From contig JAMORD010000065.1 in assembly GCA_027063755.1 (NCBI GenBank), positions 1 to 10,017 of the forward strand: 10,017 nucleotides of DNA. Direction: 5' to 3'. Shown here one piece after another: positions 1-10,017 of this stretch (within the stretch, counting starts at the first letter, position 1; every line of letters starts with the position of its first letter). The notes beneath the pieces were generated by a model. That model made no database searches and had not been told where the DNA came from. It saw only the letters and a program-made list of their open reading frames with translations. The translations under genes were made by a program, and so were the position numbers. The DNA is from a bacterium (GTDB lineage Bacteria; Coprothermobacterota; Coprothermobacteria; Coprothermobacterales; JAADFF01).

Positions 1-1
1 T

Positions 2-1084
2 GGTGATAATTCTGTTCTCAGAAAATGGGGTTTGAATTTTAATGAAAACAATATTTATCGCATTATTGTTCCCTCTATACCTGAGGAAGGATTTAATTAT
101 GAAGGTTTCTATGATCTGATTATTCCTGAAACACCAAATGATGGATTCCCTAATAATGGATGGTTTAGATGGGGTAGAAGAGGAAATGAAGGTAGAGAAG
201 GATCAGAATTTGGTGGGTTTAGTATTTCTTGTGATTACTGTGTTAGCCTGAAAGAAAGGGATCTTGCTAACTGGTTTATGCATTGGAATATAGGTGTTAA
301 AAATGCTGCGGTGGAAAATACATATGTTTTACTACACAAATATAAGGGTAATAGTCCTATCCCCGGTATAGGGATATATGCAAACTATTCTCAAGGATCT
401 GAGCTTGTGCATGTATTTATGCCTTATTTTGCAGATGAATTTCATAGGGATTACTATGGATGTGAGGATCAGATAGAGAGAATCATTAAAAATGGGGCAT
501 GGAGAAATGGATTTGATAAAGATGTGTTTGAAGAGGTGCGTAAGTGTGTTGTAAGGAAAATAGGAAGTGGTCGCCTCAATGAAAGTAGTATGGTTCTATT
601 TCATGCGCCAAGTGATGTTGTTAGGACAAGTCTCCTAGGATGGTGTTTAGATTGGTATTTAGATTGGTGTATAGAGTGGTATTTAGATTGGTGTATAGAG
701 TGGTGTTGTTGTGAATGGTGTTGGGATGATTGTTTGTTGAGTGGCTCTCATACTTTGCATCTACCATTTTTATCAGATGCTCGTTGGTATCTTATGACTG
801 GGGATCAGTATATGGATAAAGTTGTAGATATTTTTGATAATAGATGGAAAAGAGAAAAGGGAAAGCTTTCTGGTCATTTTAATAACGAAGATTTTGCATG
901 GATTCAAATTCCACATCATGGGTCAGAGGGTAATTGGTCCAGAAATAATGCAAATAAAAGTTGGTACTCGCTTCCTGATGGAATACACAGAAAGTATTTT
1001 ATCTCAGGTACTACGGGAAGTAATGTGTTTTCTACCATTGAGGATTTACTTTCTAATAATAAAATAGTTTTCTGGTTAAGGTAG
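2..1084 (+). CDS. MBL-fold metallo-hydrolase, ComEC/Rec2-like, C-terminal part (5' partial)
   Basis: The frame is open from the first bases of the window, so the gene begins upstream; the TTG at 32 is only the first internal start-like codon and has no convincing ribosome binding site. Residues are counted from position 2. Family motifs visible in order are N193-E-S-S-M-V-L (the 'N-S-lVl' strand), L-M-T-G-D (TGD at 266-268, a metal-ligand Asp) and I-P-H-H-G-S (HH at 305-306), followed by a short tail ending in F-W-L-R. This order matches the C-terminal half of the MBL domain found in ComEC and its stand-alone relatives, which are metal-dependent phosphodiesterase/nuclease-like enzymes. The HxHxDH motif must lie before the window. 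Oddities: the usual final G..N.y.HP segment is replaced by G-T-T-G-S-N-V-F-S-T with no His. There is a Trp/Cys-rich insertion at residues 214-242, and two similar PxIPEEGF / PETPNDGF segments near residues 23-48. The gene is probably co-translated with the next one. The fold is fairly sure; the substrate is unknown. Confidence 0.72.
   Translation, partial: GDNSVLRKWGLNFNENNIYRIIVPSIPEEGFNYEGFYDLIIPETPNDGFPNNGWFRWGRRGNEGREGSEFGGFSISCDYCVSLKERDLANWFMHWNIGVKNAAVENTYVLLHKYKGNSPIPGIGIYANYSQGSELVHVFMPYFADEFHRDYYGCEDQIERIIKNGAWRNGFDKDVFEEVRKCVVRKIGSGRLNESSMVLFHAPSDVVRTSLLGWCLDWYLDWCIEWYLDWCIEWCCCEWCWDDCLLSGSHTLHLPFLSDARWYLMTGDQYMDKVVDIFDNRWKREKGKLSGHFNNEDFAWIQIPHHGSEGNWSRNNANKSWYSLPDGIHRKYFISGTTGSNVFSTIEDLLSNNKIVFWLR
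641..727 (+). repeat. 12-bp in-frame tandem repeat encoding W-[CY]-[LI]-[DE] units
   Basis: Units of the form TGGTRTWTAGAK begin at 641, 653, 665, 677 and 689. They are followed by a diverged 15-bp unit at 701 and a diverged 12-bp unit at 716. The 24-bp pair at 653-676 recurs exactly at 677-700. Each unit encodes Trp plus Cys/Tyr, Leu/Ile and Asp/Glu, so Trp falls every fourth residue, and the last units are Cys-rich. Because the period is a multiple of three, gain or loss of units would keep the frame. The array lies in the loop between the S-M-V-L strand and the TGD strand of the MBL domain. Confidence 0.9.
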
Positions 1085-1095
1085 GTGAGTTGGAG

Positions 1096-2355
1096 ATGAA
1101 AGTGTATGTGGTCGATAAAACTATTTATGAGCTTTTGTCAGATATTCATAATAGTGTTTCTTTAGGGTTCGAAAAGTATGTTCAAAGGAAAGAAGACTTT
1201 ATTACCGAATCCATATTGAAAGATGCTTTAGGAGGTTTTTTATTGGAAGGCAAAAATGATAACCAGAAAAGTGGTCAATCTGTAAAAATATTGGAATTGA
1301 AAGATGAAGAGTCAAACAAAGTTCAGAGAGCCATTCTCTTTTACAAGAAAAACAGCAAGGGAGTAGATGAACAGCTATTCAATGATGTTCTTATGATGAG
1401 AGTGTTTGTAAACGATTTAGAAGAGTTTTTAAAACTTTTGGAGACCACGACAGATGTTTCTCAGATATGGAAAGGAATTTCAAGAAGTGTAGAGTACCAT
1501 TTTGCAGAAGCGAAGCTCTGCACTGCAAGCTGCAACTATCCATGGAAAAAATCGGGGAAATCCAATTACAGACAGATGATAAAGTTTTATGACATTTATC
1601 GTCCCCGGGGTGGGTTATGTCCTGTTCATTGGATATATGTCAAAGACAGACAATATGCCAATAAAACGAAAAAGTTTATTCCTGTGCATGAGGGGTTTAA
1701 TTGCTGGATTATTGAGGATAGTAATTCGCTATGTGAGTATTATATAGATTTGGGAAAAGTTCCAGAAGGAGACTTTAGGGGATGGTGGATTTATGGTGTT
1801 GGTTTAATCGATTATTGGAAAAGCATATTCGGTTTTATAGATAATACCTGCGCTTGTGGGAGTGAGAATTGCCACTTCGGATTTGCTAAAGTTCCAATTA
1901 TGTATGGTGGAGAAGTAAAAAACATTCCTGGAATATTGGAAGATTTTGTTGTCTTGGTAGTAGTGGAGAATAGTTCAGGTAAAGATAGTAACCAAATACC
2001 TACAGATGAATTTTCTGAGGGTATGCTTACGAATCTAAATCAGCTTATGAATTATATGTATGCTAATATTGCTTTATATGTTACTAGGCTTATAGTTGAT
2101 AGAGCGAGACAAGAAGGCTCCGATGTCTATGGAGAGGATAGAGAGGATATTAAAGTATGGTTAGACGAAAGAGTGTTGAAGGTTTGGAAAGCTAATGGGG
2201 AATTAACTCCTAAGGGGAAATTGTTTATAGAGTGGATGAATATTCTAAAAAATCCTACGAGTATTTCGAATCAAATTGATAGTACTAAAACTAAAACTGT
2301 TATCCAGCGTATGTCTAGAAAAGATACAGGAAGAAGTTGGAGAAGCAAAAGATAA
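1096..2355 (+). CDS. Unknown protein with cysteine cluster, possible GAF-like domain
   Basis: I do not recognise this 419-residue protein. The start is taken as ATG 1096, with AGGTGAG at 1083-1089 well spaced before it; that sequence overlaps the stop codon of the MBL gene, which suggests translational coupling. A TTG at 1090 in the same frame is too close to this site. There is no signal peptide or clear membrane helix. From about residue 105 to 332 the pattern of helix (VNDLEEFLKLLETTTD), strands, then V-P-I-M-Y-G-G...VVLVVVE, D-E-F-S-E and a long final helix resembles a GAF domain with a large insertion. Eight cysteines fall at 142, 146, 175, 203, 213, 252, 254 and 259, the last three as C-A-C-x4-C-H, which could bind zinc or a cluster. 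The tail is basic (ends R-S-W-R-S-K-R). The GAF assignment is inference from pattern only. The context suggests a sensor or partner for the MBL enzyme. Confidence 0.7.
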   Translation: MKVYVVDKTIYELLSDIHNSVSLGFEKYVQRKEDFITESILKDALGGFLLEGKNDNQKSGQSVKILELKDEESNKVQRAILFYKKNSKGVDEQLFNDVLMMRVFVNDLEEFLKLLETTTDVSQIWKGISRSVEYHFAEAKLCTASCNYPWKKSGKSNYRQMIKFYDIYRPRGGLCPVHWIYVKDRQYANKTKKFIPVHEGFNCWIIEDSNSLCEYYIDLGKVPEGDFRGWWIYGVGLIDYWKSIFGFIDNTCACGSENCHFGFAKVPIMYGGEVKNIPGILEDFVVLVVVENSSGKDSNQIPTDEFSEGMLTNLNQLMNYMYANIALYVTRLIVDRARQEGSDVYGEDREDIKVWLDERVLKVWKANGELTPKGKLFIEWMNILKNPTSISNQIDSTKTKTVIQRMSRKDTGRSWRSKR

Positions 2356-2492
2356 ATTGTAATTTTACTATGATTGCATTGATGTTATGTAATTGTTGAG
2401 ATTTGTGTGTATTGCTAAAGATGAGACTACAGAGGGGTTTTAGATAAGAGAGACCGTGAAGAGAGGTGGGGTAAGTTATTTTTTTCGTAAAC

Positions 2493-2654
2493 ATGTCTCT
2501 GCTGCTATATATTTTTACAGAATGCGGTTTAGGAACGGAAATATCCTTTGAAGCGAGCAATAATGTCATTGATATTCCCCAAGAGAGACCTATGTTGCGT
2601 ATTATATTTGGTAAGTTAGGTGAAGTTGTGGGACAGATTACAGAGTTTTTATAA
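2493..2654 (+). CDS. Short orphan ORF (53 aa) or gene remnant
   Basis: ATG 2493 to TAA 2652-2654 encodes 53 residues with a protein-like composition, including E-A-S-N-N-V-I-D-I-P-Q-E and I-F-G-K-L-G-E-V-V-G-Q. The frame is open back to a TAA at 2472, giving at most six more codons. There is no Shine-Dalgarno sequence before the ATG (the upstream bases are T-rich), and I recognise no family. It could be a small real protein, a remnant of a decayed gene, or chance. Confidence 0.25.
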   Translation: MSLLLYIFTECGLGTEISFEASNNVIDIPQERPMLRIIFGKLGEVVGQITEFL

Positions 2655-2737
2655 ACTGCTGGTTTGTGAAATGGTATTATAATAGTAGAGTAGTTTTTAA
2701 TAATATGGTTCTGGTGGGTGTGTGCTTTTCCACCATT

Positions 2738-2751
2738 GGTATACGGTATAA
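2738..2751 (+). promoter_or_regulatory. GGTATACGGTATAA motif, possible operator or -10 region
   Basis: It contains TATAC-G-GTATA, an imperfect dyad centred on one base. A 13-of-14 match, with CCAC also just before it, lies upstream of the EamA gene at 7491-7504. It could be a -10 region, a binding site, or coincidence; the core also occurs once inside the EamA coding region. Confidence 0.25.
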
Positions 2752-2792
2752 GAGTTGTTTTCTGGCTGGGTATGGCAATTTTGCCTCTGGTA

Positions 2793-2821
2793 TTCATCAA
2801 ATTTACTTTAGTATATATAAA
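2793..2821 (+). promoter_or_regulatory. Candidate promoter of the YbjQ-family gene
   Basis: TTCATC (2793-2798) and TATAAA (2816-2821) are separated by 17 bases, fitting a sigma-A type promoter. It lies about 60 bases before the start codon at 2883. The region is AT-rich, so chance matches are easy. Confidence 0.35.
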
Positions 2822-2882
2822 ATAAAACATGGTAATATATAATAAATTAAAAATATTCTTGGTTTGCTTGGAGGTGCTAAGT

Positions 2883-3200
2883 ATGATAGTAACTACAACA
2901 CCGACGGTAGAGGGAAGAAAAATCGTAAGGTATCTTGGGGTTGTGTGTGGGGAAACCATTATAGGCACGAGTATTGGAAGAGATCTCTTAGCAAGTTTAA
3001 CAGATGTATTTGGTGGACGGTCTTCAGAGTATGAAGATGTTGTTAGATCGGCTCGTGATGCTGCTATGAACGAGATGATAGAAGAAGCCCAGAAAATAGG
3101 GGCCAACGCTGTTGTTGGGGTAGATATAGACTACGAAAGCATTGGGCAAAGCAATATGATGATGGTATCGGTTTCGGGGACTGCTGTGGTGATAGAGTAA
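2883..3200 (+). CDS. YbjQ/UPF0145 family protein
   Basis: This 105-residue protein starts at ATG 2883, six bases after an excellent GGAGGTG (2870-2876). An in-frame ATG at 2829 would add 18 residues before the family's normal N-terminus and has no good binding site. The sequence shows the family hallmarks: M-I-V-T-T-T-P-T-V-E-G at the N-terminus, Y-L-G-V-V-x-G-E at 17-24, the R-D-L-L-A-S-L-T-D-V-F-G-G-R-S-S-E-Y segment near 33-50, and A-x-x-I-G-A-N-A-V-V-G-V-D-I-D-Y in the second half. Length matches the usual 100-110 residues. Members are small cytosolic proteins, annotated as putative heavy-metal-binding by fold; their biochemical role is not settled. It appears to be transcribed alone and ends at a shared hairpin facing the convergent chemoreceptor gene. 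Confidence 0.93.
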   Translation: MIVTTTPTVEGRKIVRYLGVVCGETIIGTSIGRDLLASLTDVFGGRSSEYEDVVRSARDAAMNEMIEEAQKIGANAVVGVDIDYESIGQSNMMMVSVSGTAVVIE

Positions 3201-3222
3201 AAAGGCGCCCCTTTGGGGCGCC
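3199..3222 (-). terminator. Intrinsic terminator of the downstream MCP gene, shared by convergent genes
   Basis: GGCGCCCC (3204-3211), a TTT loop and GGGGCGCC (3215-3222) form a perfect 8-bp GC stem. The A run at 3199-3203 gives a U-tract for minus-strand transcripts coming from the chemoreceptor gene that ends at 3235. On the plus strand the hairpin follows the YbjQ-family gene by 3 bases, but only CTCTCAAC comes after it, so termination there would be weaker. The last bases of the YbjQ stop codon lie in the A run. Confidence 0.85.
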
Positions 3223-3234
3223 CTCTCAACATCT

Positions 3235-5511
3235 TTACACTTTAAACTTGCTTAGCAGGTTCTGGAACACGGATACCTCGTCTTCTATCTTTTCTACGGC
3301 ATCTCTGAGCTGTCTGGTAACTTCTTCCATGTTCTGGGTAGAAGCGGAGATCTCCTCTGCTGTGGCACTGTTCTCTTCGGCCACTGCGGCAATTTGCTCT
3401 ATGGCACTGGAGATAACACCTACCTGATTTCTAATGGATTCTACTCCTTCTATGATGTCGTTTATCTTTACGACAATCTGTTGAGTGTCTTCTCCCAGTT
3501 TTGCCGTTTTATCGGCAACCTCCATGAGCTGTTTGCCTTCCTCTTCCAGTGCTTTGAACTTTGTTTCTATATCTTTTACGATTTCTTCAATCTTGGTGAG
3601 TAGTTCTCTAAGAATGTTTCTAATGTCAGATGCACTTTCTTCAGACCTCTCTGCCAGTTTTCTAATCTCATCGGCAACAACGGCAAATCCTCTTCCTGCC
3701 TCTCCAGCACGAGCCGCCTCAATGGCCGCGTTGAGGGCCAGAAGGTTCGTTTGCTCGGCTATCTCGGTAACGGTGTCTACGATAGAAGATATGTTTTCTG
3801 CCATTTGATTCAGCTCCATAGCGGACTGCACCAGTGTGCCAAGGCTTTCCACCTGGGAGCCCAACTCGTTGGCAATTTTTACAACATTTTCTGCATTGTC
3901 GGCAAGGGCAGATATGGTAGCATCTACAACCTCCTGTGATGCTTTCGCAGAGACTGCCATCTGCTCTACGCTCTCCATTATCTGAGAAGCACTTTCTGCA
4001 GCATTGGTTGCCTCGTTGGCCTGCTGGGTTGCAGCTTCGGCAAGCTGTGCCACGGCGTCGGTCAGCTGGGCTATGCTATCGTTCATATACTCAGCTGCCT
4101 CAGAAAGCTGGGTAGAAGAAGTCTTGAGGGACGATGTGGCCTTGATGATGTTCAAGACAAAGTCTTTTAGTGACTGCAAGAGTTTCTTAATAGCACCGAC
4201 AAGGTGTCCTATCTCGTTGTTTAGTGGATAATCTGGCACTTCTACAGTAAGATCTCCCTCTGCGGCCTTCAGTGCCACACCGGCAATAGCCGGCAGTTTA
4301 CCAATTAGTTTATTAACATATATTAGGACAACTGCCATAGTAATTATTACTATCAAGACAATGCCAATAATGATACTGTTTCTGGCTGTATAGAATCCTG
4401 CAAAGTAACTATCCCATACTTTAAAACCCAGAATCCAACCGTTCTTTAGATGGACTATTCTGAGCTTAAAGCTACCTTTTTTGTCTGAGCCTGCTATCCA
4501 ATCGCCGTCTTTGGCATTCTGTATGTTATCTTCCCATAGTTTTTTATAAGATGCCAGATCGTTTTCTGTTAGTCCTGCCTCTTTGATCTTTTTCTCATAT
4601 ATGTTCTTATATTTTTCATTGTCAAGTAGACCATATTTGTCTGGATCAAATGCTATACCTACAATGTTTTCATCGGGGTGAGCTATAACGATAGAATTCC
4701 CACCCCACACAATAGGTATTCCCAATGTTTCATTGCCCTGCTTTAACACATATGTCTTTGCCATATTTACCAGTGTTTGTAGGCTGAAGTCTATACCTAC
4801 TACACCGACAATCTGACCGTTGACAGATACGGTCTTTGCCAGTGTAACAATCATGCCTCCCGTTGTGTAGTCTACATATGGGTCGGTGTACACAACCTGC
4901 CCGGGGTGTTTCATAGCCAGCTTATACCATGGTCTTACGCGGGGATCATATGTACCTTGGGCTGACACTTTCAGTGAACCTCTCAGCTGGAAACCATCCT
5001 CCCAGCCCATGTAAATAGAGAGCACATCGCCACCAACGGTTTTCATGGCATTTCTTATGAGATGTGTGATTTCAAGATATTTGCGAACGGTGGAGCATTC
5101 ATCTTGTGTGATAACTCCGTCTCTACATGCTTTGGATATCATCTCATCGGCTTTAAAGAGGTATTCATCGCTACCTATAACATTGTCCCATGATGCCAGT
5201 TCTGGTTCTCCCATTTGAGAGGCTATTTTCATGATAATATTTCTCGCTTCTTGGGGACTTGTTAGTCCTATTTCTGATATGTGTTTAACGAGATTGTTAA
5301 GTGGTATTTCTCCAGCGGCCTTGAGCCAGTTTTCTAAATCCACCTGCATGGCTTGTTGTGTGGTTTCCACTTGACCATACAGGGTATCATTGGCAAATGT
5401 CTTGAATTTGGCAAGGGAATACCAGCCGATGATAGCCGGTATAACGAGTGATAAGATCAGTGCCAAAATGATTATTTGCACTTTGACACTGGAGCCCCTT
5501 TGATTTTTCAT
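3235..5511 (-). CDS. Methyl-accepting chemotaxis protein with dCache sensor
   Basis: A 758-residue transmembrane chemoreceptor, which would signal through CheW/CheA to the flagellar motor. Residues 10-33 form the first membrane helix, about 35-375 the external sensor, and 379-399 the second helix. HAMP follows at about 400-455, then a long coiled coil with the conserved tip [20 protein letters not shown] (586-605) and [15 protein letters not shown] (606-620). The sensor has the dCache_1 signature D-P-R-V-R-P-W-Y (189-196), Y-T-D-P-Y (208-212) and V-V-G-I-D-F-S-L (237-244). R193, W195, Y196, Y208 and D241 line up with the published amino-acid-binding motif of dCache_1AA sensors, so an amino acid ligand is plausible but inferred. 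There is no C-terminal NWETF-type CheR tether. AGGTAG lies 5 bases before the ATG and an A-rich GGGGG run lies further upstream. It follows a second MCP gene by 104 bp and has a candidate promoter of its own. Confidence 0.95.
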
Positions 5512-5556
5512 AATACTACCTACCCCCTTTCTAAGTGCGTAAATATCTTCTAAATC

Positions 5557-5586
5557 ATTATAGAATGGGAGCAGTTTTTATGCGAA
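5557..5586 (-). promoter_or_regulatory. Candidate promoter of the dCache MCP gene
   Basis: On the minus strand a perfect TATAAT (5562-5557) follows TTCGCA (5586-5581) after 18 bases. The -10 is ideal and the -35 matches TTGACA at four positions. It lies about 46 bases before the start codon, in the 104-bp gap after the CZB receptor gene. Confidence 0.5.
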
Positions 5587-5635
5587 AAAGGTGGGTAGGT
5601 ATTCAAAGGCCGGGATTATCCCAGCCTTTGAATAC
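5585..5635 (-). terminator. Hairpin overlapping the 3' end of the CZB receptor gene
   Basis: A 12-bp stem (5599-5610 with 5624-5635), a single C/A mismatch and four more pairs (5612-5615 with 5619-5622) enclose a 3-base loop at 5616-5618. That loop is the TAA stop codon itself. The U-tract for the minus strand (A run at 5585-5589) begins nine bases after the stem, further than usual. It may therefore be a weak terminator or an mRNA 3'-end stabiliser. Confidence 0.55.
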
Positions 5636-7205
5636 ATTCGTTTAAGATAGATGTGAGTGTTTGACTGAGGTTTTCGGCCTTTTCTACATATGTAGGAGAT
5701 ACTTGTTTGCCTTCTTGTAGCATTGAAACAACTTCTTTACCCACATCATGTATAGCCTTATGTGTGCTATGTATTTGGTCCATTTTATCTTCACATCCGG
5801 GTATGTTATTGCCTAACATCAGTAGGCTTAAGGCAAACGAGCATCTCGTGCTATCAATCTCCAGTGCAGATGGTGATTTATTACCTGCAATGATGTCTTT
5901 TAATGTGGATACCCATTTTTGATGTTTTTTAATGGTTTCTCTTAGTATCTGCTTTATTTCTTCCTTGCCGAGTATTTTGTAGTTGGCAATAGATGACAGT
6001 TCAGATTGTGCTGTTTGTATAAGTTCCTGAGAGTTGTTATACGCTGTATTTAGCTCTTTAAGGGCTTCGTGGTAAAGTTCATTAACTTTGCCTAATTCTG
6101 TGCTGACTTCTTCCATGCTACCGCTGATGTTTTCAACAGATGCATTCATTTCTTCAATAGATGCATATATTTGTTCTGCTATGCCCGATAGCTCTATTGC
6201 CTGTCTGCCGATGTTATCTGCCTCTTGGGCTATGGTTTCTGCCGACTGCTTTGTTTGGGTATTAAGCACGAGGGTTTCTCGGGTTTTCTCCTGCACTTCA
6301 CTGGTTAGTTCGTTTAGTGTATTAATACTTCCCGTAATATCTCTAAGGTTGTCTGCGATTTGGTTAGCTGACTCACGGGACATCTCTGCCAGCTTTCTAA
6401 TCTCATCGGCAACAACGGCAAATCCTCTTCCTGCTTCACCGGCCCTTGCTGCCTCAATAGCGGCATTGAGGGCAAGCAGGTTAGTTTGTTCGGCTATATC
6501 GGATATGGTTTTTACAATATCTGATATTACTGCAGTTTTCTGCACCAGTTCTTCTGAAGCCTTTTTCAGATTGCTCATAGACCTTAGTGTTGCCTGCATA
6601 CTTTTTAGAGTCTTATCTGCTATCTCAAGGTTGTTTACAGATATGGAGCCAATGTTTTCTGCTGCATTCCTGAAGGTTTCTGCACTCTGTGCCAGTTTTT
6701 CCCCTGTTTCGGATAGGCTGTGCATAGCCGATGCTATTTCTGTGGCAGATGTTGCTGTTTCCGATGCCATATGGTTGATGTTGTCAAGATATGAGGTAAT
6801 GGTGTTTATATGGTTTACGCTAATTTCAATACTTGAAGCGGTTCGGCTTGAACGGGTAGCAAGGAGTTTTAGTGATGTGCTCAGTGAAAACATAATCTTT
6901 CTTGCTGTTTGCAATATCCTGTTAACCAAGAGGGCTATGGTACCTATTTCATCTTGTCTTTTGGTAGAAATTTCTACGGTGAAGTCGTTGTTGCTGGTGA
7001 TATGTGATACGGTCTGTGCGAGCTCGTCTATAGGTTTTAAAGATATATACAGAGTGGCAAAATTGGCTACAATAACGCCAATTACAGATATGATAATAGT
7101 CCATAAAATCTTGGGTGGTGCCGGCCATATGATAGCCAATGCTACTATACCGCCTAATGCAATAACACCAGATGTCCACAGGGTAACCTTTGTCTTTAAC
7201 GACAT
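5616..7205 (-). CDS. Membrane-anchored MCP with C-terminal CZB zinc-binding domain, no ectodomain
   Basis: The start is set at ATG 7205-7203 (M-S-L-K-T-K), preceded by GGAGGGAG with normal spacing; the frame stays open to an ATG at 7277, but those 24 extra residues lack such a site. The protein has 529 residues. Two hydrophobic helices at about 10-27 and 33-56 are joined only by about five residues (P-A-P-P-K), so nothing substantial is exposed outside. HAMP is at about 56-104. The MCP signalling domain has its tip at about 239-275 ([14 protein letters not shown] ... E-I-R-K-L-A-E-M-S). The C-terminal 416-526 looks like a chemoreceptor zinc-binding (CZB) domain: H428-x2-W, C455, and H482-x3-H486. 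The C-to-H and H-to-H spacings of 27 and 4 match those I recall for the zinc ligands of the E. coli DgcZ CZB domain. The 'L-x-C-x-F-G-x-W' context is altered to R-C-S-F-A-L-S. Known CZB proteins sense zinc or oxidants such as HOCl; the ligand here is inferred. Confidence 0.92.
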
Positions 7206-7241
7206 TCCTACTCCCTCCAAAATTGAATTTTGAAAATCCCT

Positions 7242-7271
7242 AAAATATTTTAGCACGTCAAACAATGTAAA
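7242..7271 (-). promoter_or_regulatory. Candidate promoter and palindrome upstream of CZB receptor
   Basis: On the minus strand TTTACA (7271-7266) and TATTTT (7247-7242) are 18 bases apart. The -10 lies inside the perfect palindrome CTAAAATATTTTAG (7240-7253), so a repressor could bind there. A TTGACG at 7261-7256 has no well-spaced partner. AT-rich context makes this tentative. Confidence 0.3.
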
Positions 7272-7490
7272 AGGCATATATCGGAACTCGTAACGGTGGG
7301 AATGGGATGTGTTAAAAATTTGATAGTTGCGGGAGAATTGATGACATGAAGAAAATATGGGTATTTTGGTTCTAAAAGCCTATTTTATATGCGTTAGTTG
7401 AGAGGGGGTTAACTATCCTGCTGTGTTAATTTGTATTATAGGAATACTGTTTGTAATGGAGATACAAAAGGAATAATCTTTTTGCTCCAC

Positions 7491-7505
7491 GGCATACGGT
7501 ATAAT
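7491..7505 (+). promoter_or_regulatory. Candidate -10 region of the EamA operon
   Basis: A perfect TATAAT (7500-7505) lies 30 bases before the ATG at 7536, leaving room for a short leader with the ribosome binding site. No good -35 hexamer is seen at 16-18 bases. The bases just before it (GGCATACGG) form the motif shared with 2738-2751. Confidence 0.4.
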
Positions 7506-7535
7506 GTGAAAAATAAACTTTGGGGGAAGAGAGGA

Positions 7536-8417
7536 ATGACTGCACGGGCCCAAGGCCTTTTATATATGGTCCTTACTGTTGTGTTGTGGGGAGTGTCTTT
7601 TGTTGCCACCAAGGTTCTTGTTGGCACTGTGCCCCCATTTACTGCCGGTTTTTTAAGATTTGTCCTTGCTGTGGCCATCTTGTATGCACTTGTGCGTATT
7701 CCCATACAGTATCGTGGAAGGGATAAATACTATGCCATGCTTGCCGGTTTCTTTGGTGTTACTATGTACTTTGTCTTTGAGAATACAGGTTTAAAGTTTA
7801 CAACAGCCACCAATGGTTCCCTTATTGTGTCCTCAACCCCTGTATGGTATCTGGTAGTGCGTGACCTAATACACAGAAAGCCATCTGCACTTATCAGATA
7901 CATAGGTACCATTATGGCATTTGTCGGTGTGGCTATTATTGTATTCAATGGTAGGTTTGTGCTAAAACTCAATTCATTGGGTGATACGCTCATGTTTGGT
8001 GCAGCGTTTGCGTGGATTTTCTATACGGTATTTGTTGAAAAGCTCTCTGGCTATGACGAACTGCCACTAACAAGGGATATCAGTCTGTGGGGACTTATTT
8101 TCTTTATACCTTTTACAGCCTACGAACTAATGAGGACACCGGTAGAGTTTTCTAAATGGTTTACCCTGTCTGCGTGGATAGCCCTTATATATCTGGGTGT
8201 GTTTTGCTCTGCCCTTGGTTATTTCATGTGGAATAAGGCCATATCTCTTGCCGGTGGCAAGACAGTGACCAATGGGCTCTATTTTATTCCCATTGTCACG
8301 GCCATATCGGAGTTTTTCATATTGGGAAATAGTCCCAATATCTATACCGTTGTTGGTGGTATTCTTACGGTACTTGGTACCTATATTGCAGAAAAAGATG
8401 TTGGAGGTGGAAAATGA
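7536..8417 (+). CDS. EamA family (DMT superfamily) transporter
   Basis: This 293-residue integral membrane protein starts at ATG 7536, eight bases after GGGGGA (7522-7527). The frame is open upstream to 7431, but those 35 residues are not typical of the family and span the TATAAT. About ten hydrophobic helices can be drawn (roughly 6-24, 36-55, 66-84, 92-108, 121-138, 148-166, 183-199, 212-231, 243-260, 268-284), in the two-repeat EamA arrangement. The first helix has the typical L-W-G-V-S-F-V-A-T-K and the second repeat has A-F-A-W-I-F-Y-T-V. Family members are mostly proton- or gradient-driven exporters of amino acids or metabolites. It overlaps the DUF302 gene by four bases (ATGA) and lies in one run with an Asp/Glu racemase gene, so amino acid transport is a reasonable guess. 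Family certain, substrate not. Confidence 0.94.
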   Translation: MTARAQGLLYMVLTVVLWGVSFVATKVLVGTVPPFTAGFLRFVLAVAILYALVRIPIQYRGRDKYYAMLAGFFGVTMYFVFENTGLKFTTATNGSLIVSSTPVWYLVVRDLIHRKPSALIRYIGTIMAFVGVAIIVFNGRFVLKLNSLGDTLMFGAAFAWIFYTVFVEKLSGYDELPLTRDISLWGLIFFIPFTAYELMRTPVEFSKWFTLSAWIALIYLGVFCSALGYFMWNKAISLAGGKTVTNGLYFIPIVTAISEFFILGNSPNIYTVVGGILTVLGTYIAEKDVGGGK

Positions 8418-8770
8418 TGATTAAGATTATCAGGGAGTTTGACAAGAATGTAGAAGAACTTGAAAAGAAGCTAAAGGAAGAACTTGCTGCCCGTGGATAT
8501 AAGGCAGTGCTTGAACTAACACCGAGCGATATCGTTAAGGATAAACTGGGGGAAGATATGCCCATTTATCGCATTTTGTATATCTGCAATCCCAAAGATT
8601 TTTACAATATGATAAAGGTTGATTACAATATAGGCTCATTTGCCCCATGTCCTGTGCTTATCTATGAAAAAGATGGAAAGGCATACATCTCCCTTAGCGT
8701 GTGTGAAGAGGTTGTGGATACATTAAAAGAGCCTTTTGAAAAGGTCAGGGAGGCTATAATGGCAGTATAA
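8414..8770 (+). CDS. DUF302 domain protein
   Basis: This 118-residue cytosolic protein has ATG 8414 overlapping the transporter's stop codon. GGAGG at 8403-8407 sits six bases upstream; a second ATG at 8417 is also possible and would remove one residue. The whole protein fits the DUF302 pattern: an N-terminal helix after strand 1 (K-N-V-E-E-L-E-K-K-L-K-E-E-L), G-Y-K-A-V-L-E at 28-34, K-D-K-L-G-E-D at 42-48, I-Y-R-I-L-Y-I-C-N-P-K at 51-61, and F-A-P-C-P-V-L-I-Y-E at 76-85. C58 and C79 are at the positions where the family keeps its two cysteines, as I recall them. The biochemical function of the family is not established. The tight overlap implies translation coupled to the EamA transporter, so it may support that protein or the racemase. 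Confidence 0.9.
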   Translation: MMIKIIREFDKNVEELEKKLKEELAARGYKAVLELTPSDIVKDKLGEDMPIYRILYICNPKDFYNMIKVDYNIGSFAPCPVLIYEKDGKAYISLSVCEEVVDTLKEPFEKVREAIMAV

Positions 8771-8795
8771 AACTTTGTAGGGGGAGGGGTTGAGT

Positions 8796-9488
8796 ATGGA
8801 GCTTAAAAAGATAGGTATTCTCGGAGGTTTAAGCCCTGAGTCTACCATTCCTTATTATCAGTATCTTGTTGATCTCAGTGCAAAGCATTTGCCCGAGCTT
8901 GTGTATCCAGAGATTGTTATCTACAGTGTCAACTTCGGTGAGGTTGTTTCCAATATGCGTAGTGGCAATGCCGACAAGGTCAGAGAGCTTTTCCAGAAAG
9001 TTCTTGACCATTTTAAGGACATGGGTGTAGAGGTGTTTGCCATTGCATGCAACACCATGCATATACACCTACCTTATCTCAACACCTATGACATGGAAGT
9101 TGTTCATATTGTTGATGTTGTGGGCGATGAGGCAGAGAAGCACGGTTATAAGAAGCTTATGCTCTTTGGCACAAAGAGACTCCTTGACAGTGGTCTTTAC
9201 AGGGAGATGCTTGCTAAAAGGGGCATAGAGGTTATATATCCCGAAGAGGAAGATGCCATTGCCATAGATAAGCTGATATTCAGGCTTGGCAACGGTGAGA
9301 TTAATGATGAGACAAGGGCAGAGGCTGTGAAGTATGTAGAGAAGTATAAAGATACTGCCGATGCCATCATATTGGGATGCACAGAGCTGCCTCTTGTTGT
9401 GCCCGAAGGCGAGTATAACACCATTGACACAACACATCTGCATGCCAAAGCTATCTTCCGCAAGTCAACAGGTGTAGATATAAAGTAG
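8796..9488 (+). CDS. Aspartate/glutamate racemase family protein
   Basis: This 230-residue, cofactor-independent racemase starts at ATG 8796, six bases after a long GGGGGAGGGG (8780-8789). The TTG at 8790 lies too close to this site. The N-terminal G-I-L-G-G-L-S-P-E-S-T (7-17) is the substrate-binding loop. The catalytic cysteines are C85 in A-I-A-C-N-T-M-H and C195 in I-I-L-G-C-T-E-L-P, with spacing as in known Asp racemases of the two-thiol mechanism. Length matches the usual 225-245. It most likely interconverts L- and D-aspartate, but members of this family also act on glutamate and other amino acids or hydantoins, so the substrate is open. It is the last gene of the EamA-DUF302-racemase run, 25 bases after DUF302, with two successive TAG stops and a terminator hairpin. 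Confidence 0.93.
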   Translation: MELKKIGILGGLSPESTIPYYQYLVDLSAKHLPELVYPEIVIYSVNFGEVVSNMRSGNADKVRELFQKVLDHFKDMGVEVFAIACNTMHIHLPYLNTYDMEVVHIVDVVGDEAEKHGYKKLMLFGTKRLLDSGLYREMLAKRGIEVIYPEEEDAIAIDKLIFRLGNGEINDETRAEAVKYVEKYKDTADAIILGCTELPLVVPEGEYNTIDTTHLHAKAIFRKSTGVDIK

Positions 9489-9500
9489 TAGCATGTCAGC

Positions 9501-9525
9501 GAGGCGGGGTATACCCCGCCTCTTT
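9501..9525 (+). terminator. Intrinsic terminator after the racemase gene
   Basis: A perfect 22-base palindrome at 9501-9522 folds as a 9-bp GC-rich stem (GAGGCGGGG with CCCCGCCTC) around a TATA loop, followed by TTT. The U-tract is short, but the stem is strong. It separates the EamA operon from the amidase gene. Confidence 0.75.
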
Positions 9526-9546
9526 GCATATCTGGGAGGGTTGATG

Positions 9547-10017
9547 ATGAGGTTCAAGCATATCCTGTATGTAGCTGCTGTTCTTGTCTTATCTGCGGTG
9601 ATATCCTTTGCAATGTGGAGACACGCAGGGGAGAGTCTTGTGTCATATGATGGGGAAGATTATAGTAAAGACATCGCACTTTCTGCTCCAGCCATGATTC
9701 AATATGCCCAGAAGTGGGCCCATAGTAGAAACCCCCAGTTTTATCACTACACACTTGACTGTGCCAACTTCACATCGCAGATACTTTATGCCGGCGGTAT
9801 GCCTATGATAAAAAATCCGCAGAAGGCATGGTATCACTACAGCAGATATGAGATATGCGGGCTGGGTAGTATTACAGGTATAGAACACCGATGCAAACGA
9901 TGGTATGTATCCCGCTCATGGACCCTTGTTGACGATTTTAGGGAATGGATAGTGAAAAGGGTGAAAATGGCCGATGCCATTTATATCGGTGTGCCTATGG
10001 ATAGGTGGCATACCCCT
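9547..10017 (+). CDS. Amidase_6-like cysteine amidase with N-terminal membrane segment (3' partial)
   Basis: The frame runs without a stop from ATG 9547 to the window's last base, 157 codons. GGAGG at 9535-9539 lies seven bases before this ATG; an adjacent ATG at 9544 is an alternative. Residues 5-23 are hydrophobic after M-R-F-K-H, giving a signal peptide or membrane anchor, so the domain should lie outside the cytoplasmic membrane. Residues 48-88 match the Amidase_6 family pattern: P-A-M-I-Q-Y-A-Q-K-W near 48-57, then D-C-A-N-F-T-S-Q-I-L-Y-A-G-G-M-P-M at 71-87 with C72 as the likely nucleophile. Next come K-A-W-Y-H-Y and, further on, S-R-S-W-T-L-V-D-D-F. Family members are thought to be secreted, cysteine-dependent amidases possibly acting on cell wall or peptides. 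The catalytic His region is probably the ...V-P-M-D-R-W-H at 149-155 or beyond the edge. Confidence 0.82.
   Translation, partial: MRFKHILYVAAVLVLSAVISFAMWRHAGESLVSYDGEDYSKDIALSAPAMIQYAQKWAHSRNPQFYHYTLDCANFTSQILYAGGMPMIKNPQKAWYHYSRYEICGLGSITGIEHRCKRWYVSRSWTLVDDFREWIVKRVKMADAIYIGVPMDRWHTP

What the first reader, a model, noticed from the sequence alone, without database searches (positions are those of the whole stretch)
2..2355. Possible undescribed two-gene system: ComEC-like MBL hydrolase plus Cys-rich GAF-like partner
The two genes are separated by 11 bp with the ribosome binding site of the second overlapping the stop of the first, a sign of stoichiometric production. Stand-alone MBL enzymes of this class often accompany partner proteins in bacterial conflict and signalling operons. 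The second protein matches no family I recognise. The pair lies in AT-rich sequence next to a poorly coding stretch, unlike the tightly packed genes that follow. A sensor plus nuclease/phosphodiesterase pair is a reasonable model.
Basis: partly seen in the sequence, partly recalled or inferred. Interest (0 to 1): 0.72.

Follow-up and report, generated by a model that had tools for sequence, protein, structure and literature searches.

The report
RAMP-linked metallo-hydrolase defence cassette
The two genes at the start of this window belong to a larger, probably antiviral cassette that couples a CRISPR type III-like RNA-binding protein to a ComEC-like metallo-hydrolase and two related unknown proteins, a combination I could not find in any other genome searched.

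Summary
A contig-truncated MBL gene (2-1084) is followed 11 bp later by gene Y (ATG 1096-2355). The same genome holds a second, diverged copy on contig C144. It shows the missing upstream part: a short Cmr4-like RAMP protein (Cas7 family), X (a homologue of Y), a stand-alone MBL with an intact HFHADH motif, then Y, all on one strand. So this is at least a four-gene, RAMP-linked cassette, not a two-gene system.

The MBL is ComEC-like but not ComEC. Its weak best matches are defence-associated MBL nucleases of Lamassu and DRT systems. A roughly 210-280-residue insertion between its metal motifs recalls the protease-gated pro-nucleases published in 2025. Y is not GAF-like. X, Y and Y' share a motif that reads like a PD-(D/E)XK nuclease, but two structure predictions failed, so that is unproven.

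Both copies are under purifying selection (dN/dS 0.4-0.5). No relatives were found in up to 386 sampled genomes, plasmids, phages, viral contigs, or two pattern scans of 85,000 species. Best guess: an effector arm of a type III-B-derived system. Whether it has its own Cas10 cannot be seen: C144 breaks inside the RAMP gene.

The parts
2..1084 (+). 3' part of the MBL gene (N-terminus with HxHxDH lies off the contig); carries NESSMVLF, LMTGD and IPHHGS motifs
   Evidence: ORF open at the contig edge; 55-60% identical to the C144 MBL; C-terminal piece matches PADLOC LmuA and PDC-M48B at 0.003-0.008
641..707 (+). In-frame 24-bp tandem repeat (CLDWYLDWCIEWYLDWCIEW) in the hypervariable stretch just before the TGD motif
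   Evidence: Tandem Repeats Finder; absent from the C144 copy
1090..2355 (+). Gene Y (421 aa from TTG 1090; ATG at 1096), partner protein of unknown family; invariant ITE, ND, EAK and Q shared with X and Y'
   Evidence: ORF; 77% identical Y' in C144; homologous to X, 26% over 154 aa, E=3e-7; invariants
2493..2654 (+). 53-aa ORF downstream of Y, status unclear (small gene or gene remnant); its first half is also at the end of C144
   Evidence: window 2527-2589 identical over 63 bp to the end of C144; no relatives elsewhere

Best explanation
The pair is the 3' half of a RAMP-X-MBL-Y operon, seen more fully in a second copy on contig C144 of the same genome. I think it is the effector arm of a type III-B-derived defence system. 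In this model the Cmr4-like RAMP protein, alone or together with the two type III-B complexes also encoded in the genome, recognises foreign RNA through a guide; X and Y (possibly PD-(D/E)XK-type proteins) connect it to or regulate the MBL enzyme; and the MBL enzyme, whose active site is probably covered by a long insertion, is released to cut nucleic acid. Shown: gene order in C144, conservation of the MBL-Y pair, selection on the coding sequence, Cmr4 similarity of the RAMP, MBL motifs, length of the insertion, X-Y homology. Inferred: defence role, nuclease activity, gating by the insertion, roles of X and Y, and that the window copy also follows a RAMP gene.
For: C144 gene order RAMP-X-MBL-Y on one strand. 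RAMP: Pfam RAMPs 23.5 bits (cut-off 22.1), PADLOC Cmr4 3e-12, TIGR02580 4e-9, aligned with the genome's other Cmr4 proteins. MBL: HFHADH, TGD and PHHGS motifs; C-terminal pieces of both copies separately give LmuA and PDC-M48B as best PADLOC matches, and the C144 piece also RTasMBL. HxHxDH-to-TGD distance 367 aa against 67-97 in ComEC-type and 144-159 in LmuA-type proteins, in line with the insertion-gated MBL pro-nucleases of PMC12799240. dN/dS 0.40 and 0.47. Two type III-B gene sets elsewhere in the genome.
Against: The RAMP link rests on one locus; no other genome shows it. MBL family matches are weak (E 0.002-0.05), and the library-wide E-values are not compelling on their own. The C144 MBL is frameshifted. 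No Cas10, Cas5 or CRISPR array was seen on C144 or C65, though C144 is cut inside the RAMP gene. No protease-like partner. X/Y fold unresolved.
Confidence: 0.5

Rival explanations
1. X-MBL-Y is an accessory cassette that merely sits downstream of an ordinary, complete type III-B operon (with Cas10 and all Cmr genes off the contig), and is triggered by its second messenger rather than by the RAMP itself.
For: The genome has two type III-B gene sets with Cas10, one with a CARF/HD-like protein, and C144 is cut just upstream. G+C of the RAMP gene (46%) differs from X, MBL and Y (34-36%), as if two modules were joined.
Against: The C144 RAMP is a reduced Cmr4 lacking the mid-region, unlike the two ordinary Cmr4 proteins. 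No CARF or SAVED match in MBL, X or Y.
Confidence: 0.3
2. A defence or mobile-element cassette unrelated to CRISPR; the RAMP gene is a neighbour or remnant by chance.
For: RAMP seen in one copy only; its start is missing; RAMP and X-MBL-Y differ in G+C. Defence islands mix systems.
Against: X starts within about 10 bases of the RAMP stop on the same strand, and the RAMP keeps the RAMP glycine-rich loop and the Asp aligned across the genome's Cmr4 proteins.
Confidence: 0.15
3. The MBL is a cut-down ComEC/competence protein with no defence role.
For: Same motif layout as ComEC-type hydrolases by motif (comparators).
Against: The C144 gene starts with its own ATG 36 bp after X and has no ComEC membrane region. 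Its insertion is far longer than in ComEC-type proteins. No ComEC model is matched in NCBIfam at E up to 1.
Confidence: 0.03

Closest known systems
Gated MBL pro-nucleases of Hachiman (HamM), AVAST (Avs1a), Lamassu, DRT and Canu (CanC) systems (PMC12799240)
   Same: ComEC-like MBL encoded as a separate gene next to a partner gene; insertion between the metal motifs; PHHGSxxN block like LmuA-type proteins
   Different: Insertion about 210 aa longer than in LmuA-type proteins; partner is not a recognisable trypsin-like or caspase-like protease; context is a Cmr4-like RAMP, which is not among the contexts named in the text I read
Type III-B CRISPR-Cas (Cmr)
   Same: RAMP protein is Cmr4-like; the genome has two other III-B gene sets
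   Different: Reduced Cmr4; no Cas10, Cmr1, 3, 5 or 6 seen on C144 or C65; X, MBL and Y are not known Cmr subunits
Type VII CRISPR-Cas (Cas14-Cas7-Cas5; PMC10910872, PMC12669027)
   Same: Pairs a Cas7-family RAMP with an MBL-fold enzyme in one operon
   Different: MBL is ComEC-like with no beta-CASP sign; no Cas5 seen; Cas7 is Cmr4-like rather than III-D-like and keeps the aligned Asp that type VII Cas7 lost
ComEC/Rec2 (COG2333-type MBL domain)
   Same: Motif order HxHxDH, NxSSxVL, TGD, PHHGS
   Different: Stand-alone gene, no membrane part, 367 aa between HxHxDH and TGD against 67-97

Membership tests
Gated MBL pro-nuclease (PMC12799240) | MBL metal motifs | tested here: met
   HFHADH in C144 and TGD, PHHGS in the window
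Gated MBL pro-nuclease (PMC12799240) | Insertions near the active site relative to ComEC-type nucleases | tested here: met
   367 aa between HxHxDH and TGD against 67-97 in ComEC-type proteins; position relative to the active site in 3D not tested
Gated MBL pro-nuclease (PMC12799240) | Partner protease of trypsin or caspase type | tested here: not met
   X and Y match no protease family; no Cys invariant in X, Y and Y'
Gated MBL pro-nuclease (PMC12799240) | Cleavage sites in the insertions; activation by cleavage | not testable with these tools
   Needs biochemistry
Type III-B CRISPR-Cas | Cmr4-like Cas7 in the operon | tested here: met
   PADLOC Cmr4 3e-12, TIGR02580 4e-9 but below its cut-off; reduced form
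Type III-B CRISPR-Cas | Cas10 and the other Cmr genes in the same operon | tested here: inconclusive
   None on C144 or C65, but C144 is cut inside the RAMP gene; Cas10 found only on C125 and C103
Type III-B CRISPR-Cas | CRISPR array nearby | tested here: inconclusive
   No repeats on C144, C103, C125 or C178; contigs are short
Type VII CRISPR-Cas | Cas14 (beta-CASP MBL) effector | tested here: not met
   MBL has the ComEC-like TGD/PHHGS layout and its best PADLOC matches are LmuA-type
Type VII CRISPR-Cas | Cas5 in the operon | tested here: inconclusive
   Not on C144, contig cut upstream
PD-(D/E)XK nuclease (X and Y) | D...ExK motif with supporting residues conserved in the family | tested here: met
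   ND, EAK, Q invariant in three sequences; motif reading only
PD-(D/E)XK nuclease (X and Y) | Core fold | tested here: inconclusive
   AlphaFold2 pLDDT 33 and 36; no profile match
   No GAF match for Y at E up to 1 or for its N-terminal part at E up to 10
ComEC/Rec2 | Membrane competence domain joined to the MBL | tested here: not met
   C144 MBL is a stand-alone gene with its own ATG after X

The most novel reading that the evidence does not exclude
A Cas10-independent, type III-derived system in which a single reduced Cmr4-like Cas7 protein directs a ComEC-like MBL nuclease through two PD-(D/E)XK-like proteins: a parallel to type VII reached with an unrelated MBL enzyme.
Probability: 0.12. 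Interest if true: 0.85.

Novelty: new variant of a known kind. Interest (0 to 1): 0.52.

Why it matters
If true, it adds RAMP/type III CRISPR to the immune systems that recruited ComEC-like MBL nucleases, with a partner that is not a recognisable protease. That would imply another way to hold and release such a nuclease. X, Y and Y' form a protein family with no significant match in any library searched.

Tried and rejected
GAF, CARF or protease identity for Y: no significant profile hits in Pfam, NCBIfam, PADLOC, PHROGs or PDB sequences.

Homologue hunts that found nothing outside this genome: MBL in 193 genomes; Y in 60 and an X/Y profile in 386 genomes (of the six marginal hits the two best-looking were inspected and lie in unrelated loci, the other four were not opened); RAMP in 290; plasmids and phages by tblastn; viral contigs by protein patterns; genome contigs with A1 and with a motif query. 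The short motif rows of alignments A3 and A4 were written by me as search aids and are not real sequences.

AlphaFold2 on the X/Y set failed twice, so no fold search was run. The MBL itself was not folded. Linking C144 to C178 or C103 by end overlap failed. Synteny with the same-genus genome could not be used because YbjQ has no counterpart there. Type VII and ComEC membership were considered and rejected. Literature searches found no report of this MBL type in a type III locus, in an open-access library only.

Full report
What is there. The window is a whole contig (G000:C65, 10,017 bp) of a 1.5-Mb, 251-contig draft genome of about 88% completeness. At its left edge lies the 3' part of a gene (2-1084) with LMTGDQ and IPHHGS motifs, and 11 bp after its stop a second gene, Y (ATG 1096-2355; TTG 1090 possible). 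The first-stage description of these two genes and their spacing is right. The pair is AT-rich (35-36% G+C against 39-44% in the following genes), and 2356-2880 has no long gene.

Second copy. Searching the same genome found one more copy, on contig C144 (4,693 bp), with Y 77% and the MBL 55-60% identical. C144 reads, on one strand: RAMP protein (194 aa, cut by the contig end at its start), X (339-348 aa), MBL (497 aa, ATG start, HFHADH at residues 94-99, then a frameshift with the last 83 aa in another frame), Y' (407 aa). X starts within about 10 bases of the RAMP stop. The MBL-Y junction is conserved between copies. dN/dS is 0.40 (Y) and 0.47 (MBL), so both genes have been under selection as proteins. 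The first 63 bases of C144 are identical to window 2527-2589, although the genes next to them differ by 20-40%. This fits either a tandem duplication or two strain variants that rejoin in the assembly graph; I could not decide. In both cases the window copy probably continued upstream into X and the RAMP gene, but that is inferred.

The RAMP. It matches Pfam RAMPs by a short margin (23.5 against a cut-off of 22.1 bits), PADLOC Cmr4 at 3e-12, and TIGR02580 Cmr4 at 4e-9, below that model's own cut-off. It aligns with the two other Cmr4 proteins of the genome but lacks much of the mid-region. It keeps an Asp in the position that, from my own knowledge of Cmr4, is the RNase residue. The genome also has other type III-B genes: C103 (Cas10 end, Cmr3, 4, 5, 6, 1, then a CARF/HD-like protein), and C125 and C178 (Cas10, Cmr3; Cmr1, Cmr4, Cmr5), the last two perhaps one set. 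The one same-genus genome and the five same-order genomes searched show no RAMP match.

The MBL. No Pfam match reaches its cut-off. The C144 protein gives only a weak RNase Z match over HFHADH (7e-4). C-terminal pieces from the two copies, scanned separately, both give LmuA and PDC-M48B as best PADLOC matches (0.002-0.008), and the C144 piece also RTasMBL of DRT systems (0.05). Real proteins fetched with the LmuA profile serve as a yardstick: the distance from HxHxDH to the TGD-type motif is 67-97 aa in ComEC-type proteins, 144-159 aa in LmuA-type proteins and 367 aa here. The PHHGSxxN(L/W) block is like the LmuA-type proteins; that comparison covers three sequences only. A 2025 paper shows that ComEC-like MBLs in Hachiman, AVAST and caspase loci are pro-nucleases whose active site is covered by insertions until a partner protease cuts them (PMC12799240). 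Our protein fits that plan in motifs and in having a long insertion, but its partner is not a recognisable protease. Part of the insertion is hypervariable between copies, with a 24-bp in-frame tandem repeat in the window copy (641-707).

X and Y. They are homologous (BLASTP 3e-7, 26% over 154 aa). Residues invariant in X, Y and Y' include ITE, ND, EAK and a following Q, which I read as a PD-(D/E)XK nuclease signature. This is a motif reading on three sequences. AlphaFold2 failed (pLDDT 33 and 36), and no profile library or PDB sequence search supports any family. GAF is not supported.

Distribution. No relative of MBL, X/Y or RAMP was found outside this genome in 193, 386 and 290 sampled genomes respectively, in plasmids or phages, in viral contigs or in two pattern scans of 85,000 species. 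The cassette is therefore rare or fast-evolving as far as I could look, and the RAMP link rests on one locus.

Verdict. The pair is real and is part of a RAMP-X-MBL-Y cassette. The best-supported reading is a type III-B-derived defence effector cassette built on a ComEC-like, probably gated, MBL nuclease; the defence role and the chemistry are inferred. It works like known gated MBL effectors in plan, but is not filed as one because the protease partner was tested and not found. It is not type VII or ComEC. Whether it is Cas10-independent cannot be told from the broken contig.

Noticed in passing
window 2883-10017: Ordinary neighbours: YbjQ-family protein, two chemoreceptors (one with a Cache-type sensor, one with a weak zinc-binding CZB match), EamA transporter, DUF302 protein, Asp/Glu racemase, and an amidase_6 fragment at the contig end.
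   Followed up: partly
L023 (G000:C103) 1-6840: A type III-B operon (Cas10 end, Cmr3, 4, 5, 6, 1) followed by a 496+ aa protein matching CARF-HD effectors.
   Followed up: partly
L047 (G000:C125) 1-5854 and L024 (G000:C178) 1-3589: Further type III-B genes (Cas10, Cmr3; Cmr1, Cmr4, Cmr5), perhaps one split operon, with unknown ORFs of 410 aa and 342+ aa next to Cas10 and Cmr3.
   Followed up: partly
L006 (G000:C144) around 1580: Frameshift between the 497-aa and 83-aa parts of the MBL gene; sequencing error or a damaged copy, not decided.
   Followed up: no
window 641-707: In-frame 24-bp tandem repeat that makes a Trp/Cys-rich stretch in the MBL, absent from the other copy.
   Followed up: partly
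window 2527-2589: 63 bp identical to the end of contig C144, far more alike than the flanking genes; looks like an assembly-graph junction or a recombination edge.
   Followed up: partly
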